Source: an uncultured Methylopila sp.
Lineage (GTDB): Bacteria; Pseudomonadota; Alphaproteobacteria; Rhizobiales; Methylopilaceae
Length of the DNA: 64,000 nt
Direction of reading: 5' to 3'
NCBI GenBank assembly: GCA_902168115.1
Contig: CABHPB010000050.1
Location: 1-64,000, forward strand
Part shown: in pieces, positions 4,376 through 63,482 of the stretch
Layout of the letters: each line of letters starts with the position of its first letter
How positions within the stretch are numbered: position 1 is the stretch's first letter
Made by a program: the position numbers and the translations under genes
Notes under the pieces: model-generated
Database searches by the model: none
Told to the model about the DNA's origin: nothing
Seen by the model: the letters and a program-made list of their open reading frames with translations, nothing else

Positions 4376-5093
4376 CCCCTTGTTTTCGTTGAGATCCGCG
4401 CATGCGCCCTCGAAGCGGACGCTTCGGGGGCCGCGCGATGCGGTCGGATGCCGTTTCTGATGACGCCAAGCACGCAAGACGCGTCCCGGACGCGGACCGT
4501 CCTGCCCGCCGCTCCCGGACGCGCCGACAACTCACGCCCGCCAAAGAACGCTGTCAACAACTATAAAGTCATCGATTGCAAAGAAGCTTTGAATTTGGCG
4601 CATACGAAAGAAAACAAGATGTACGAATACGTACGTTGTTTTACGGACCCTGTGTCGGCTCCTTGATCCGGCCTGTGGCCGCTGCGCATCATCGCAACGT
4701 GTTCCGCGACTTGCGACGCGACGCGAAAAGCGCGGCGCCGGCCGTTGTGATGATCTGCCGGCAGATGAACCGGCGGGGCCCCCGCGCGAGCCCCCGATCC
4801 GATGTCCGGCGAGAGACTAACAACAGCAAGATCTGGCGGCAGCAGGTCCCAAATCCAGTCTTTCCTCGCGTGGTATCCTAATAATTAGTTTAAATGCGCT
4901 ACATTATGGTTTACGTAATATTAAAGTAAACAATTCGATGACGATACGAAACTCATTTCATTAGAGCTGTATGACAGATTAATCAAATATTAACCATGAT
5001 GACGGATGCAGTGGGCGTTTGACATTTGCCACGAGCAAGCATCCAATGCCGTTCCGGGCTTGGGGAAAGCTTGGGTCGATCGGGGTTCAAGTG
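4376..5093. promoter_or_regulatory. AT-rich regulatory region upstream of gspD
   Basis: About 720 bases without a convincing gene. From 4555 to 4640 and again from 4870 to 5010 the sequence is far richer in A and T than its surroundings. It holds an inverted repeat GTTTAC-N11-GTAAAC (4909-4931), an 8-base palindrome ACGTACGT (4629-4636) and a CtrA-like box (4979-4993). It probably carries promoters for gspD to the right and the HbpS-like gene to the left. A 101-codon open frame at 4576-4881 has no coding character. Confidence 0.6.
4979..4993. promoter_or_regulatory. CtrA-like box upstream of gspD
   Basis: TTAA-N7-TTAACC (TTAA at 4979-4982 and 4990-4993), a full match to the consensus of the alphaproteobacterial cell-cycle regulator CtrA. 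It lies about 100 bases before the gspD start in an AT-rich stretch where a promoter is expected. Chance matches to TTAA pairs are less rare in AT-rich DNA, so binding is inference. Confidence 0.5.
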
Positions 5094-7400
5094 ATGAAAG
5101 CGGCTCGTTTTCTGGGCGTCGGCGCCTGTATCGCCGTCCTGGCCGCCTGCGCGACGAGCGAGGAACAGGGCCCCCGTCCGTCGCTGCTGAACACGGGCCT
5201 GTTCTCGGACGTCTCAGCCAAGAAAGGGCGGTCGGACATCGGTCGGGATGGCGCGCTCGCGATGTCGGTCTCGAATTCGGCCGAGGCCTCGACCGTGGTC
5301 GGCGACGCCGCGACCGGTCCGATCAAGCGGGTCGCCTTCGTGAACGAGGAGGGCGAGGACGACGCCCCGGCGCCCGGCGCCGCGGCCGGAGCCAGCTATC
5401 GCCTCAACTTCGAGAACGCCGACATCCGGCAGGTCGTCCAGGCCGTGCTCGGCGAGACGCTGAAGCTCAACTACACCATGACCGAGGACGTCTCCGGCAA
5501 GGTGACGATCTCCTCGCCGCGCGCATTGACAGGCCAGGAGCTGCTCGCCGCGCTCGAATCCTCGCTGAACGCCAACGGCTTCTCCATGACGAAGGCGGCC
5601 GGCGGCTACCGCATCGCGCCGACCGCGGTCGGCGGCGGCGTGGTGGACACGCCGTTCGCGACGCAGCCGAGCTACGGCGTGTCGGTCGTGCCGCTGCGCC
5701 ACGTCTCGGCGAACACCATGGGCAAGCTCGTCGCCGGCTTCGTCGCCGAGAACGACGGGCTGCGGGTCGACGCCGCGCGCAACGCCATGGTCATCCGCGG
5801 CCCGGGCCAGAAGCGGCAGGAGGCGGTCGACGCCATCATGTCGTTCGACGCCGACTGGATGCAGAACCAGGCCGTCGGCATCTACGAGGTGCGCCGCGCC
5901 CAGCCGGACGCCGTCGTCACCGAGCTCAACCGCGTGTTCGACGCCGACATGAAGAACGGCGCCGCCGGCAGCGTCATCCAGTTCAAGCCGATCTCCCGGC
6001 TGCGCGCCGTGATGGTCGTCACCAAGAACCCGCAGCTCCTGAAGCGCGCGGAGACCTGGGTGCGCCGTCTCGACCGCGACACCACGAGCGGCGCCGAAAA
6101 CGTCTTCGTCTACAAGGCGCGCTACCGAGACGCCAAGGAGCTGGCGCGGATCGTCACGCAGCTGTTCCGGGCGGGCGGCGACGCCAACGCGATCGCCTCG
6201 CGCACCTCGAACGCGACGCCTGCGGCGACGCCCACCGGCATCGGCGAGAACAGCAGCACGCCCAACACCGGCTCGGGCTCGTCGGGTTCGTCCTCGTCCT
6301 CCTCCTCGTCATCGTTCAACCGGTCTTCCTTCGGGCAGAGCCAGACCCCGGGCCAGAGCGGGAGCGGCCAGCAGTCGTCCTTCGGCAACCCGAACTTCGA
6401 CGGCCAGAGCGGGAGCGGGGACCAGTCCGGCTCGGACAGCTCCGGCAGCGGCGACTCGATCGACCTGACGTCGCAGGCGGCGGCGCAGAAGTCGAACATA
6501 CTCGTAAGCGCGGACCCGGCGAACAACGCCGTCGTGGTCTACGCCGACGGCTACACCTACCAGAAGGTGCTCGCGGCGCTCCGGCAGCTGGACACCGCGC
6601 CGCTGCAGGTCGCGATCCAGGCGACGATCGCCGAGGTGACCCTCAACGATCAGATGAAGCAGGGCGTGCAGTACTTCGTGGAGTCGCACTCGCTCGGCCT
6701 CGGCAACGACAACGGCTCGTTCCGGCTGCTGAACGGAACGGCCAAGGCGCTCACCAAGGCGACCACCGGTTTCAGCATCGCGCTTGGCTCGAACTCGAGC
6801 CCCGACGTCGTCATCCAGGCGCTCGACCAGGTGACCGACGTCGAAGTGCTGTCCTCGCCCTCGCTCGTCGTCGCCGAAAACCAGCCGGCCAACTTCCAGG
6901 TCGGCGACGAGGTGCCGGTGCAGACGGCGCAGCAGAGCAGCGCGATCACCGGCCTGCAGAACAGCTTCGAGTACAAGGACACCGGCGTGATCCTGAACGT
7001 CACGCCGCGCATCGGCACCAACGACGCGGTGACGATGCAGATCGAGCAGGAGATCTCCGCCGTCTCCGGCCAGACCGCGAACTCGCTGACGCCGACGATC
7101 TCCAAGCGTCGCGTCGCGAGCAACATCTCGGTCACCAGCGGCCAGACCGTGCTGCTCGCGGGCCTCATCAGCAAGCGGGACGAGCGCCGCAAGAGCGGAA
7201 TCCCCGGCCTCGGCGACCTGCCGGGCGTCGGCGGCCTGTTCTCGACGCGCGAGCACAACAAGAATCGCACCGAGCTGGTCGTCTTCATCAAGCCGGTCGT
7301 GATCCGCTCCGGCGAGGACGCGTCCTCGGTCGCGAATGAGTTCCGCTCGCGCCTGCTGGTCAGCAATGGCGGCTCGATCCGGACCAACTACACGAAGTGA
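5094..7400 (+). CDS. gspD: Type II secretion outer-membrane secretin GspD
   Basis: 768 residues from the ATG at 5094, chosen because it yields a lipoprotein signal MKAARFLGVGACIAVLAAC with lipobox LAAC; GGGG lies 8 bases upstream. Upstream in-frame ATGs give no signal peptide. Domains: N0 (about 101-165), N1-N3 repeats to about 480, interrupted by a Ser/Gly/Gln-rich low-complexity insert (about 393-456), then the secretin core with VPVQT (about 610) and the conserved ending GIPGLGDLPGVGGLF. It forms the outer-membrane channel. An acylated secretin could reach the outer membrane without a separate pilotin. First gene of the plus-strand operon. Confidence 0.94.
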   Translation: MKAARFLGVGACIAVLAACATSEEQGPRPSLLNTGLFSDVSAKKGRSDIGRDGALAMSVSNSAEASTVVGDAATGPIKRVAFVNEEGEDDAPAPGAAAGASYRLNFENADIRQVVQAVLGETLKLNYTMTEDVSGKVTISSPRALTGQELLAALESSLNANGFSMTKAAGGYRIAPTAVGGGVVDTPFATQPSYGVSVVPLRHVSANTMGKLVAGFVAENDGLRVDAARNAMVIRGPGQKRQEAVDAIMSFDADWMQNQAVGIYEVRRAQPDAVVTELNRVFDADMKNGAAGSVIQFKPISRLRAVMVVTKNPQLLKRAETWVRRLDRDTTSGAENVFVYKARYRDAKELARIVTQLFRAGGDANAIASRTSNATPAATPTGIGENSSTPNTGSGSSGSSSSSSSSSFNRSSFGQSQTPGQSGSGQQSSFGNPNFDGQSGSGDQSGSDSSGSGDSIDLTSQAAAQKSNILVSADPANNAVVVYADGYTYQKVLAALRQLDTAPLQVAIQATIAEVTLNDQMKQGVQYFVESHSLGLGNDNGSFRLLNGTAKALTKATTGFSIALGSNSSPDVVIQALDQVTDVEVLSSPSLVVAENQPANFQVGDEVPVQTAQQSSAITGLQNSFEYKDTGVILNVTPRIGTNDAVTMQIEQEISAVSGQTANSLTPTISKRRVASNISVTSGQTVLLAGLISKRDERRKSGIPGLGDLPGVGGLFSTREHNKNRTELVVFIKPVVIRSGEDASSVANEFRSRLLVSNGGSIRTNYTK

Positions 7401-47517: not shown

Positions 47518-47892
47518 TCAGACTCCGAAGCTGATCTTGAGCAGGGCGAAGGCCGCCGCGAGCCCGATGACCACCGCGAAGAACGCGTTGGCCATCAGCG
47601 CGACGAGCTTGAGCAGGTCGTCATGGACATAGTCCTCGATGATGACCTGCATGCCGATCTTCATGTGGATCGTCGCCGACAGCACGAAGAGCAGCATGAG
47701 GATGGCGATCCAGGGATTGCCGAGCAGCGCCGTCGCGCCGGCGTGGCTCGATCCCGACAGCGCGATGACAACGCCGACGAAGACCAGCGACAGCGCGAGG
47801 TTCGCGACGGCGGTCAGCCGCTGGAGCCAGAAATGTTCGGTTCCGGACTTCGCCGCGCCGAGGCCGCGGACCTGGCCGAGAGGGGTTCGCAT
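47518..47892 (-). CDS. sdhD: Succinate dehydrogenase membrane anchor subunit
   Basis: 124 residues from the second of two adjacent ATGs. Three membrane helices: LTAVANLALSLVFVGVVIAL, NPWIAILMLLFVLSATIHMK, LVALMANAFFAVVIGLAAAF. The heme-ligand His region is HMKIGMQVIIEDYVHDD, typical of SdhD. Anchors SdhAB to the membrane and helps form the quinone site. Between sdhC and sdhA. Confidence 0.93.
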   Translation of the reverse strand: MRTPLGQVRGLGAAKSGTEHFWLQRLTAVANLALSLVFVGVVIALSGSSHAGATALLGNPWIAILMLLFVLSATIHMKIGMQVIIEDYVHDDLLKLVALMANAFFAVVIGLAAAFALLKISFGV

Positions 47893-47911
47893 CATGTCGC
47901 CTCTCCTCCCC

Positions 47912-48319
47912 TCAGCCCGCCGCGCCCTTGAGGACGTAGCCGACGATCCAGATCAGAACAGTGAGGCCGATCCCGCCGAACAGGCAGACCCGGTACAGCA
48001 GCTCGCGCTCCGGCCCGAAGCCGTGGCCGACGTCCCAGATGAGGTGGCGTACGCCGCCGAGCGCGTGATGGACGAGCGCCCAGGTGTAGAAGAACAGGAC
48101 GAGCTGGCCGAGGATCGAGCCGTAGATCGCCTGGACCGTCGAGAAGGCCGACGGCCCGGACGCAGCCGACACCAGCCAGATCACGATCAGCAAAGTGCCG
48201 ACATAAAGCGCGCCGCCGGTGATGCGATGCACGATCGACATCATCATCGACAGCATCGGGCGGTAGATCTGCAGATGGGGCGACAGCGGCCTACCGGATC
48301 CGGCGTGCGGCGAGTCCAT
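47912..48319 (-). CDS. sdhC: Succinate dehydrogenase cytochrome b556 subunit
   Basis: 135 residues from the ATG at 48319 with AAAGGT about 9 bases upstream; a TTG at 48349 would add 10. RPLSPHLQIYRPMLSMMMSI and VHRITGGALYVGTLLIVIWL are the SdhC signature; heme His in ALVHHALGGVRHLIWDVGHG. Three helices. First gene of the sdhCDAB operon. Confidence 0.94.
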   Translation of the reverse strand: MDSPHAGSGRPLSPHLQIYRPMLSMMMSIVHRITGGALYVGTLLIVIWLVSAASGPSAFSTVQAIYGSILGQLVLFFYTWALVHHALGGVRHLIWDVGHGFGPERELLYRVCLFGGIGLTVLIWIVGYVLKGAAG

Positions 48320-48583
48320 GGGCTGTGGACCTTTGCCTGTCTTGAGCAATTCGAAGTTCCGCCGACGGACTAGCGGATGCTGCGCCGCAGCGCAACGCCG
48401 CGCACCGTCATGGCGGGGTCGCCTTTAGGCCATAACCGACGGGAAATATGAGCCAAACCTGCATCGCGGCAACGGGATCGTGCGACATTTCAATGATTTG
48501 TCACGCCACCGGGTCGCCTCAATCTTTACGCTCGGCGCGCAATCACGATAAGAGACCAAAGAGACTTCGATAGGAACCAATAG
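48320..48583. promoter_or_regulatory. Divergent promoter region sdhC / TetR
   Basis: 264 bases between the divergent sdhC and TetR genes. It must carry the sdh operon promoter and the TetR promoter; the stretch 48490-48580 is less GC-rich than elsewhere. I see no strong palindrome or clear -35/-10 pair. Confidence 0.4.
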
Positions 48584-59108: not shown

Positions 59109-59798
59109 TCAGTCGCGACGCATCTGCGGCCAGCGCTGCTGGACCACCTTGAACAGATTGTCGTCGAGCTTCGCGACCAGCTGCACGTCGGAGAGCTGCA
59201 CCGAGGTCTCCATGCCCTGCGCGTCGGTGACGATCCACTGCTGGAGCGCGTAGGTCTTGGAGTTGAACATCAGCTGGATCTGCGCCTTGCCGCCGATCGA
59301 GTTCTTCTCCTCCATCACGACCGAGACGAGCTCCGGCTCCTGATAGACCCCGAGCACATTGCCGTTCTTCAAGAGGTCGACATTGTTCTGCAGCAGGAAG
59401 CGCAGCGGCGTCTGGCTGAGCGGCCAGAGCTCCTGCGTCGCGAGCTTTCGGTTCTTCACCGAGACCGAGGATCCGTCCGAGACGATCTCGAGCGGGCTCG
59501 GCGGGGCGTACTGGAAGCGGATCTTGCCGGGGCGCGACAGGTAGAGCTTGCCGACCGTGCGCGAGCCGTCCGGCCCGGTCTGCTCGAAATTCGCGGTGAC
59601 GTTCGACAGCGTGTTGAAATAGGCGTTCACGCGCTGGAGCGTCGCCTGCTGCGTCGGGTTGAGCTGCGACGTCGGAACGGCGTCCTTGCCCTTGCCCATC
59701 AGCTTCTCGAGGAAGTTCTGCGCGCTCGCGGGCGTCGCCGCAGGGGCGACGAGAAGAAGCGCGGCGAAAAGGGCGGCGAGCGGGCGGAAGGCGGTCAT
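59109..59798 (-). CDS. lolA: Outer-membrane lipoprotein carrier protein LolA-like
   Basis: 229 residues. Signal peptide MTAFRPLAALFAALLLVAPA with cleavage near PASAQ; mature protein has the unclosed-barrel pattern RVNAYFNTLSNVTANFEQTG, PGKIRFQYAPPSPLEIVSDG and later LWPLSQTPLRFLL. It carries lipoproteins across the periplasm. In alphaproteobacteria lolA usually follows ftsK directly; here a signal-peptidase-like gene comes between. Confidence 0.9.
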   Translation of the reverse strand: MTAFRPLAALFAALLLVAPAATPASAQNFLEKLMGKGKDAVPTSQLNPTQQATLQRVNAYFNTLSNVTANFEQTGPDGSRTVGKLYLSRPGKIRFQYAPPSPLEIVSDGSSVSVKNRKLATQELWPLSQTPLRFLLQNNVDLLKNGNVLGVYQEPELVSVVMEEKNSIGGKAQIQLMFNSKTYALQQWIVTDAQGMETSVQLSDVQLVAKLDDNLFKVVQQRWPQMRRD

Positions 59799-59895: not shown

Positions 59896-60831
59896 TCAGC
59901 GCACGGGCTTGCCGAGGCGGCTCCAGTCTGGGCTCCAGGTTACCATGACTGGTTTGCCGAGCGCGCTCTCGACCGGGATATCTCCGAACACTCGGCTGTC
60001 CATCGCTTTGTCCCGCGCATCGCCGAGCAGATAAAGATGCCCGTCCGCCACGCGCCGTTCCGCAACCTCCTCATATCGCGCCGGATTCGGCGGCTCCCTC
60101 ACGATCAGATAGTTTCGATCTCCGTTCTTCTCATCGAAGGCCTTGGTCGAGGCCGTGAGAAACCTGGATAAGGCGCCCTGGGAAGGCAGCGGCGCGGAAC
60201 TCTGATCCAGACGACGTCCGTTGACGACTGGATTCCCTTGATGAATCGCGACGACGTCTCCAGGCAGTCCGATGACTCTGCCGAATGACGGAACCGGGGG
60301 ATTTGGCTGAGAGAGGAAAAAAACGATGTCGCCCCGCTCCCAGGCGCGATTGGGCGCGACGAGGACGCATTCTTTAGGCCTAAGCGCCGGCTCCATCGGC
60401 CACGAGTAACGGCAGACCTGCGCGACCTTGAAGAGCCATGTCGCGTTGATCGTGTGAGCCGACGTCGCCAAAGCGATCCAGGCCGCGAACACAAGGCAGT
60501 AGAAGATCCCTTCTTGATACCAGAGGCCTGTTCGGTCTTCGCCTTGGCGCACGACCCGATCGAGATCGCATGCGAACGCAATGCAAACGAGAAAATGGGA
60601 GACGGCCGCCACAACGGCGACCGGGCGATAGTCGAGCAGGCCGAACGGCAAATTCGACAGCAGCCAAATGAATGCCGCAGCGCCGACGAACGCCGCGGCT
60701 CCTCGGCCAAAACGGCCGGCATAGGCATAGCCGACCGGCGGCATGAACATGCCGAGACTCGCCGCTCGCTGGCGTCTCTTCAGCCTCCCTGCGGTGGACG
60801 CCTCGTCGCTCATTTTGGCGACCACGCTCAC
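59896..60831 (-). CDS. Signal peptidase I-like protein lacking both catalytic residues
   Basis: 311 residues. The GTG at 60831 overlaps the ftsK stop (GTGA); an ATG at 60813 is possible. Three membrane helices (about 45-115, such as [10 protein letters not shown]-like and [16 protein letters not shown]) precede an S26-type domain (about 130-311). Conserved boxes remain: [17 protein letters not shown] and [20 protein letters not shown]. But the nucleophile position before MEPAL is Pro145 (SWPMEPAL) and the general-base Lys before RVIGLPGD is Gly184 ([10 protein letters not shown]). It therefore should not cleave signal peptides by the usual Ser/Lys mechanism. Its DNA is visibly less GC-rich than the neighbours. 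Confidence 0.82.
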
Positions 60832-63482
60832 GCCGCGTCGTCCGCGCCTTCCGTCTCCAGTAGGATCTCTCGCTTGCCGGCGTGGTTGGCGGGGCCAACG
60901 ACGCCTTCCTTCTCCATTCGCTCGATGAGCGATGCGGCGCGGTTGTAGCCAATCTGCAGCCGGCGCTGGATGTAGGAGGTGGAGGCCTTCTTGTCCCGCA
61001 GCACGACCTGGACCGCCTGGTCGTAGAGGTCGCCGCCCTCCTCGCCGAACGCGCCCTTGTCGAACGGCGCGCCGTCGGCGTCGCCGCCCGTCTCGTCGTC
61101 CTCGGCGGTCACCGCGTCGAGATAGTCCGGCTGGCCCTGGCTTTTAAGATGCGCGACGACCTCCTCGACCTCCTCGTCGGAGCAGAATGGGCCGTGGACG
61201 CGGCTGATGCGGCCGCCGCCGGCCATGTGCAGCATGTCGCCCTGCCCGAGCAGCTGTTCTGCGCCCATTTCGCCGAGGATGGTGCGGCTGTCGATCTTGG
61301 AGGTCACCTGGAAGGAGATGCGGGTCGGGAAGTTCGCCTTGATGGTGCCGGTGATGACGTCGACCGACGGACGCTGGGTCGCCATCACGATGTGGATGCC
61401 GGCCGCGCGCGCCATCTGGGCGAGGCGCTGGATGGCGCCCTCGATCTCCTTGCCGGCGACGAGCATCAGATCCGCCATCTCGTCGACGATGACGACGATG
61501 TAGGGCAGCTTCCCGATCTCCATCACCTCCTGCTCGTAGATCGCCTCGCCGGTCTCCTTGCAGAAGCCGGTCTGGACCGTGCGGGTGACGTGCTCGCCCT
61601 TGGCGAGGGCCTGCTCGGCGCGGGCGTTGAAGCCGTCGATGTTGCGGACGCCGAGCTTCGACATCTTGCGATAGCGGTCCTCCATCTCGCGGACCGCCCA
61701 TTTGAGCGCCGTCACCGCCTTCTTCGGGTCGGTGACGACCGGCGTCAGCAGGTGCGGGATGCCGTCGTAGATCGAGAGCTCCAGCATCTTCGGGTCGATC
61801 ATGATCAGCCGGCACTCCTCCGGCTTCAGCCGGTAGAGCAGCGACAGGATCATGGTGTTGATCGCGACCGACTTGCCCGAGCCGGTGGTGCCGGCGATCA
61901 GCAGATGCGGCATGCGCGCGAGCTCGGCGATCACCGGCTCGCCGCCGATGGTCTTTCCGAGGCAGAGCGGGAGCCGCATCTTGGCCTTCTCGAAGTCGTT
62001 CGAGGCCAGCAGCTCGCGCAGATAGACGGTCTCGCGGCGCGCGTTCGGCAGCTCGATGCCGATCGCGTTGCGGCCCGGAATGACTGCGACGCGCGCCGCC
62101 ACAGCGCTCATCGAGCGGGCGATGTCGTCGGCGAGGCCGATGACGCGGCTCGACTTGATGCCGGGCGCCGGCTCGAGCTCGTAGAGCGTGACGACCGGGC
62201 CGGGGCGCACATTCGCGATCTGGCCGCGCACGCCGTAGTCCTCGAGCACGCCTTCGAGCAGGCGGGCGTTCTGCTCCAGCGCCTCCTGGCTGAGCGCCGG
62301 GCCCTGCCCCTTCTTCGGCTCGGCGAGCAGCGTCAGCGGCGGCAGCTCGTAGACGTCCTGCTCGAGCAGGTCGGGCTGGGCCTCGCGCTGCGCGCGGCGA
62401 CCCGGACGGATCGGGCCGGCGGGCCGCGTGATGCGCGAGGGCGGCTCCTTGCCGCCGACGAGCTGGCGCGGCGCGCCGCCGAGCGCGCCGGTCGAGCGCA
62501 GGACCGGCTCGCCGTCGAGGTCGACGTCCATCGGGCCGTCATAGCCGTCGGCGCCGCTGAAGGCGGGCTCGCGCCGTCCGCGCGAAAAATCGTCCGGATT
62601 GCGGCTGGCCCGGGCGAGCACGCCCGACAGGCCGTCGGCGTCTTCGTTCCGTCGTGCGGAACGGCGCGCGAAGAAGCGCTCGGCCGCGCCCTTGGCCGAC
62701 AGCGCCCAGTGCGTCAGCAGGCCGAGCGAGATCAGCCGGCCGCCGTCGTCGTCCTCGTCGTAGATCTCGTCCGGCTCGGGCTCGGGCTCGCGCCGGGCGA
62801 GGCCGCGGCCCGCGACCTGACCGTTCCGGGCGGACTTGTTGGCGGCGAGACGCTGATGGGCGATCTGCGCGTTGGTGTTCGGACGGGCGGCGCGCTCGCT
62901 CGGAGCGATGACGCCGAGCGCCAGCAGGAACGCGACCAGACCGGAGGCCGCGAGCGCCGCGCCGAGCGCGATGCTGGCGACCGAGCCGCCCAGGCCGACG
63001 GCGTCCGCAGTCACGGCGAACAGGTCGCCGAGGACGCCGCCGAGACCCGCCGGCAGTGGCCAGGATGCGGGAGCGGGAACGAGCCCCGCCACGCCCGCGA
63101 AAAGGATCGAGGCGATCGGCCAGGCGATGAGCTTGACCTTCTCGCCGTCGATGGCGCGCTGGGTCATGAGCCGCCAGCCCCACACGCCGATCGGCAGCAC
63201 GAAGGCTGCGGCCGCGAGTCCGAAGGCCTGCATGAACATGTCGGCGATCACGGCGCCGGCCGCGCCGAGCGCGTTGTCGGCCGCGCCCGAGCTCGCATGG
63301 CTGAGGCTCGGATCCTGCGCCGACCAGGTGGCGAGCGAGACGCCGATCAGGGTCGCGACCGCGACGAGCCCGAGGCCGCCGAGCTCCACCGCGCGACGGA
63401 TCAGCATGGCGCGGATGCCGTCGGGCAGCAGGCTGACGGACTGATATCCGCGCGGACGCGACCTCAACGCGCGCATTGTCAT
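60828..63482 (-). CDS. ftsK: DNA translocase FtsK
   Basis: 884 residues from the ATG at 63482 with GAGGAG 7 bases upstream. Four to five N-terminal membrane helices (about 30-220) anchor it at the septum, an acidic and Pro/Arg-rich linker runs to about 400, then the motor domain with Walker [15 protein letters not shown], Walker [12 protein letters not shown], and the DNA-reading gamma domain [20 protein letters not shown]. Pumps chromosome ends at division and guides dimer resolution. Shares 4 bases with the signal-peptidase-like gene. Confidence 0.97.

What the first reader, a model, noticed from the sequence alone, without database searches (positions are those of the whole stretch)
59896..60831. 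Signal-peptidase-like protein that lost both catalytic residues
The S26 fold boxes are kept but Ser (to Pro145) and Lys (to Gly184) are replaced. The gene is coupled to ftsK, lies where lolA normally follows, has lower GC and adds three membrane helices. A pseudo-peptidase may bind signal sequences or act at the division site.
Basis: partly seen in the sequence, partly recalled or inferred. Interest (0 to 1): 0.7.

Follow-up and report, generated by a model that had tools for sequence, protein, structure and literature searches.

The report
Inactive signal-peptidase paralogue beside ftsK
A membrane protein related to the enzyme that trims export signals off proteins has lost its cutting residues, and some of its rare relatives have lost part or all of theirs separately, so it may grip exported proteins without cutting them, or may be on its way out.

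Summary
ORF 59896-60831(-) encodes an S26 (type I signal peptidase) domain behind a multi-helix N-terminus. It lacks the nucleophile Ser (Pro145, or a three-residue gap in another alignment), the general base Lys (Gly184) and the Ser that supports the Lys (Ala276). The genome keeps an ordinary LepB elsewhere. The ORF is stop-free over 311 codons and its predicted fold matches signal peptidase I. A paralogue in the same slot behind ftsK in Methylopila jiangsuensis also has Lys to Gly but keeps Ser, so sequencing error does not explain the loss. Among 14 genomes with this extended N-terminus, 7 lack the Lys, against 1 of 87 other S26 rows; on the tree the Lys state changes at least 4 times, the Ser state 3 times. 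The FtsK/division idea is weak: 2 of 13 genus genomes have the gene, and the ftsK-lolA interval varies between species. Best reading: a non-cutting pseudo-signal-peptidase that works like Streptococcus SipA (binding is inferred). Decay under relaxed selection is the main rival: long branch, lowest GC3 in the window. New variant of a known kind; interest 0.4.

The parts
59896..60831 (-). S26 signal-peptidase-like ORF, 311 aa, predicted catalytically dead; GTG start (another possible start is the ATG at codon 7)
60442..60831 (-). N-terminal extension (residues 1-130) with several predicted membrane helices; no Pfam family of its own above cut-off
   Evidence: hydropathy; model; alignments; Pfam
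60382..60408 (-). box [10 protein letters not shown] (142-150); nucleophile Ser absent (Pro145, or a three-residue gap)
60328..60336 (-). box C RGD (166-168), kept
60256..60282 (-). box [10 protein letters not shown] (184-192); Lys replaced by Gly184
59992..60024 (-). box [12 protein letters not shown] (270-280); the Ser that supports the Lys is Ala276; most of the loop modelled at pLDDT below 50
60828..63482 (-). ftsK; its stop codon overlaps the start of the gene (neighbour, not shown to belong)
59109..59798 (-). lolA, directly downstream (neighbour, not shown to belong)

Best explanation
It is a catalytically dead, polytopic paralogue of type I signal peptidase (a pseudo-signal-peptidase). 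Shown from sequence: an S26 domain; no nucleophile Ser, general-base Lys or Lys-supporting Ser; an intact ORF; an ordinary LepB elsewhere in the genome; a relative in the same slot in a second species that also has Gly at the Lys position but still has Ser. Inferred: the Lys was lost first and the Ser later in this lineage. Inferred: the protein sits in the inner membrane with its S26 fold on the periplasmic face and uses the signal-peptidase cleft to hold the N-terminus of one or a few exported proteins without cutting it (chaperone, adaptor or decoy, as proposed for SipA). Its partner is unknown; FtsK is only its genomic neighbour.
For: S26 membership. Dyad absent under both alignments, and Ala at the third position. 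Canonical LepB with Ser, Lys and Ser at G000:C47. Sister protein in G004, found again in the named record NZ_BSFK01000004.1, Methylopila jiangsuensis; sister support 99/79. Of 102 aligned rows 94 have S/K/S; 8 lack the Lys, and 4 of those 8 also have Ala for the supporting Ser, against 0 of 94 with Lys. Fewest changes on the tree: 4 for Lys, 3 for Ser; one clade of the 8 Lys-less rows rejected, p-AU 0.0006. 27 of 43 near-invariant columns kept. Chance of no stop in 311 codons of this base composition 1e-4. AlphaFold model matches E. coli signal peptidase I (E 3.8e-8) and SipA 4n31 (E 4.3e-5). Precedent: SipA with Asp48 and Gly85, essential for pilus polymerisation, cleft kept, no detectable peptidase activity (PMC4049620: abstract, first part of the discussion, cleft section, passages).
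Against: The window copy sits on a long branch (3.26 against 0.98 for its sister), has the lowest GC3 of 37 window ORFs, has lost 16 of 43 near-invariant columns (2 of the 16 are the SxS, counted as a gap) and is absent from its nearest relative G009. All of this also fits relaxed selection. The model is moderate (mean pLDDT 67.8, box-E loop below 50), and its eight-row alignment contained signal peptidases, so the fold is partly imposed. No close ortholog exists for a dN/dS test. No partner, expression or binding data. SipA itself showed no binding to the pilin or peptides tested in vitro. Counts of changes do not tell loss from gain; loss is inferred because canonical rows have the dyad.
Confidence: 0.5

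Rival explanations
1. A paralogue under relaxed selection, possibly acquired from another bacterium: it lost catalysis because it is no longer needed and is decaying in the variable ftsK-lolA slot.
For: Long branch 3.26; GC3 0.72 against 0.92-0.95 in five neighbours, lowest of 37; present in 2 of 13 genus genomes and absent in nearest G009; 16 of 43 near-invariant columns lost.
Against: No stop or frameshift in 311 codons despite very high divergence; S26 core boxes and N-terminal region kept; its sister also lacks the Lys but keeps 32 of 43 columns; low GC3 is also seen in the dyad-intact members G331 and G789 (0.43 and 0.47), so it does not by itself mark decay.
Confidence: 0.33
2. It is still a protease with a different catalytic pair, for example Ser143 with Lys153 or Lys275.
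For: In the ungapped alignment Ser143 lies at the S88 position, two residues from the nucleophile site; Lys275 lies in box E. One relative has Ser/His (G560), so the base position can change without being emptied.
Against: Lys153 and Lys275 are not kept in relatives. A Ser at the S88 position is common in ordinary rows too, so Ser143 is no sign of a new nucleophile. The Lys-supporting Ser is gone. In SipA the nearby Asp48 and Lys83 equivalents were mutated without visible effect.
Confidence: 0.07
3. A dedicated FtsK partner acting at the division site.
For: Start codon overlaps the ftsK stop; the G004 relative also directly follows ftsK.
Against: Absent in 11 of 13 genus genomes, all with the ftsK; the slot holds AAA ATPases or an ABC-3C gene in others; five Lys-less relatives (G094, G786, G560, G246, G079) showed no ftsK by eye over 11-12 kb.
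Confidence: 0.06

Closest known systems
Streptococcus pyogenes SipA (PDB 4n31, 4k8w; PMC4049620)
   Same: Signal peptidase fold with Ser and Lys replaced; the Lys position is Gly in both; Foldseek match E 4.3e-5. The two box-E Asn that SipA changed (N274 to Tyr, N277 to Glu; PMC12984324, passages) are changed here too (Ala272, Lys275).
   Different: SipA has Asp at the Ser site, one membrane helix and a pilus operon; this protein has Pro or a gap, a multi-helix N-terminus, and sits in a Gram-negative between ftsK and lolA.
Staphylococcus aureus SpsA
   Same: Inactive signal peptidase homologue lacking two conserved catalytic residues, in a genome with an active one (PMC12445088, two passages).
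   Different: Firmicute, described as dispensable; its sequence was not compared here.
LepB, canonical signal peptidase I (own copy at G000:C47)
   Same: S26 boxes, Pfam PF10502.
   Different: LepB has Ser/Lys/Ser and one predicted N-terminal helix.
Multi-helix S26 paralogues of the same order (G052, G127, G331, G789 and others)
   Same: Same kind of N-terminus (GYxYxGR, then YNRWW in several) and S26 core.
   Different: 7 of the 14 listed here keep Ser and Lys and are presumably active.

Membership tests
Peptidase S26 (Pfam PF10502) | profile match above the curated cut-off | tested here: met
   79.3 bits against 22.9
Active type I signal peptidase (LepB) | nucleophile Ser in box B | tested here: not met
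   Pro145 or gap
Active type I signal peptidase (LepB) | general-base Lys in box D | tested here: not met
   Gly184
Active type I signal peptidase (LepB) | Ser supporting the Lys in box E (role recalled) | tested here: not met
   Ala276
Pseudo-signal-peptidase (works like SipA/SpsA) | S26 fold with the dyad absent, in a genome with an active paralogue | tested here: met
   fold by prediction only
Pseudo-signal-peptidase (works like SipA/SpsA) | peptide-binding cleft kept | tested here: inconclusive
   core strands predicted; cleft residues not compared one by one
SipA proper | pilus operon with class B sortase | tested here: not met
   neighbours are ftsK and lolA
Signal-peptide binder | binding without cleavage shown | not testable with these tools
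   needs protein

The most novel reading that the evidence does not exclude
A rare group of polytopic signal-peptidase paralogues in Alphaproteobacteria has turned into non-cutting signal-peptide binders several times independently, a bacterial counterpart of the iRhom pseudoproteases (recalled analogy). The window protein is the end point, with nucleophile, base and supporting Ser all gone, and its sister in Methylopila jiangsuensis a halfway stage (Ser kept, Lys gone).
Probability: 0.3. Interest if true: 0.6.

Novelty: new variant of a known kind. Interest (0 to 1): 0.4.

Why it matters
PMC4049620 (passage) notes signal-peptidase-like proteins without the dyad in Gram-positive genomes. In eight searches of the held open-access library I saw no Gram-negative case among the papers listed; one search listed 20 of 114, and subscription journals are mostly missing. 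Here dyad-intact and dyad-less members stand side by side in one genus (G331 and G789 against G786). That gives a natural series for asking what a signal peptidase does when it stops cutting.

Tried and rejected
Search with the window protein alone in genome contigs found nothing; with the two-row alignment it found one locus, M. jiangsuensis. Plasmid searches gave matches of which no place covered 80% of the query. Canonical LepB in viral contigs found nothing. Paper searches for Methylopila with signal peptidase, and for 'inactive signal peptidase' with 'signal peptidase I', gave 0 papers. PMC4376731 (passages) lists pseudopeptidases of other families. Rejected: sequencing error (an independent genome shares the Gly); Ser-to-Pro as the only possible alignment (a three-residue deletion fits too); low GC3 as proof of decay (also low in dyad-intact members).

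Limits. The script chose rows by a box-E pattern that leaves the Ser, Lys and supporting-Ser positions free but misses proteins with a broken box E. It aligned 104 sequences; 102 rows were counted, since rows sharing a locus name overwrote each other. The 102 are the 14 extended members, L010 (G040, S/K/S, set apart by me) and 87 others. The tree used 46 of them: those 15, L065 and 30 of the 86 remaining, picked by me; the catalytic columns were left in, and three end branches are long. The 14-member list comes from profile matches that reach into the N-terminus; G127 matches from model position 66 only, and the start of its open frame does not align. At most 5 or 10 candidates per genome were scored. 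Ferried by eye only: pyrF, rnc and epimerase-like names of neighbours.

Full report
What is there. The ORF at 59896-60831 on the minus strand encodes 311 residues. Its GTG start overlaps the ftsK stop codon, and lolA follows at 59109-59798. Pfam places residues 125-299 in Peptidase_S26 (79.3 bits, cut-off 22.9); nothing above cut-off covers the N-terminus. NCBIfam's signal peptidase I model matches with 76.5 bits against a cut-off of 47, so an automatic pipeline would probably name it signal peptidase I. Hydropathy and the model give several membrane helices before the core.

Catalytic residues. Box C (RGD), the rest of box D (RVIGLPGD) and the frame of box E (GDxRD...DSR) are kept. The Lys is Gly184. 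The Ser is Pro145 in ungapped alignments; in MAFFT of the larger set the whole SxS is a gap. A third residue is also lost: the box-E Ser that supports the Lys (E. coli Ser278; numbering and role recalled) is Ala276. An ordinary LepB with Ser/Lys/Ser is on contig C47, followed by a gene that looks like rnc by eye.

Is it chance or error? A random 311-codon stretch of this base composition would be stop-free about once in 10,000. The relative in G004 also has Gly at the Lys position but keeps Ser. The same protein came from the named record NZ_BSFK01000004.1, Methylopila jiangsuensis. A sequencing error does not explain this.

Family. 14 genomes gave matches that reach into this N-terminus: G000, G004, G035, G052, G053, G079, G094, G127, G331, G780, G786, G789, G560, G612. 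The type is rare: 3 of 385 genomes of the class, own genome included, by the N-terminal profile, and 11 of 393 of the order at E 1e-61, own included, one of these (G046) over the core only. 7 of the 14 lack the Lys: Gly in G000, G004 and G094, Arg in G079 and G780, Glu in G786, His in G560. 3 of 14 also lack the Ser (G000, G094, G786). Of 87 other rows, 86 are Ser/Lys/Ser and one has Ala for Lys (G246). Among all 102 rows, Ala at the supporting Ser occurs in 4 of 8 Lys-less rows and 0 of 94 with Lys; rows are related, so this is a count, not a test.

Tree. The window protein and the G004 protein are sisters (99/79), next to G560 (98/88). The fewest changes of state are 4 for Lys and 3 for Ser; holding all 8 Lys-less rows together is rejected (p-AU 0.0006). 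Such counts cannot tell loss from gain; I read them as losses because canonical rows have the dyad. G786 (Asn/Glu) lies in a 99/98 group with dyad-intact G331 and G789 of its own genus. The window (3.26), G560 and G612 branches are long, so their places are less sure.

Place in the genome. Of 13 genus genomes only G000 and G004 have the gene. Elsewhere lolA follows ftsK at once or after a gap (G008, G009, G012), or an opposite-strand AAA ATPase stands between (checked by Pfam in G001, G002, G007), or an ABC-3C component follows (G006). The other four were not checked by Pfam. In G004 no lolA was seen in the 1.5 kb behind ftsK. Seven neighbourhoods were read (five of Lys-less proteins, two of dyad-intact ones): none had an ftsK that I recognised by eye. 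G079 lies beside a pyrF-like gene, as does G780. So the ftsK link is positional.

Selection. GC3 is 0.72 against 0.92-0.95 in five neighbours, and lowest of 37 window ORFs. But dyad-intact G331 and G789 also have low GC3 (0.43 and 0.47), so low GC3 may mark the family rather than decay. The protein keeps 27 of 43 near-invariant columns; its sister keeps 32.

Structure. AlphaFold2 with eight rows gave mean pLDDT 67.8 with a better core; most of the box-E loop is below 50. Foldseek finds E. coli signal peptidase I first (E 3.8e-8) and SipA (E 4.3e-5). The alignment held signal peptidases, so this is support, not proof.

How it works. SipA has Asp48/Gly85 at the dyad, keeps the cleft, shows no peptidase activity and is essential for pilus polymerisation (PMC4049620: abstract, first part of the discussion, cleft section and passages). 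S. aureus SpsA is called inactive (PMC12445088, two passages). By analogy I take this protein to be a non-cutting binder of exported N-termini. That step is inferred. Decay is the main rival.

Noticed in passing
genus genomes, ftsK-lolA interval (L082-L094): A variable slot: S26 paralogue, AAA_21-type ATPase, ABC-3C component or no gene, depending on species.
   Followed up: partly
L111 (G560) and L160 (viral contig): Signal-peptidase-like proteins with His at the general-base position and Ser kept, as in a Ser/His dyad.
   Followed up: no
L055 (G079) and L117 (G780): S26 paralogues of two genera, each beside a pyrF-like gene, both with Lys to Arg and the supporting Ser to Ala, yet not sisters on the tree.
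   Followed up: partly
L065 (G246): S26 paralogue without the extended N-terminus and with Lys to Ala.
   Followed up: no
genus genomes: Each of 13 genomes has a second FtsK-like match besides the ftsK of this locus; in G000 and G007 the second match contains a TGA.
   Followed up: no
window 47639-48373 (+): ORF with the second-lowest GC3 (0.73) of the 37 picked and no Pfam match at E 0.001.
   Followed up: no
window 5019-7400 (+): GspD-like secretin of the type II/III secretion kind.
   Followed up: no
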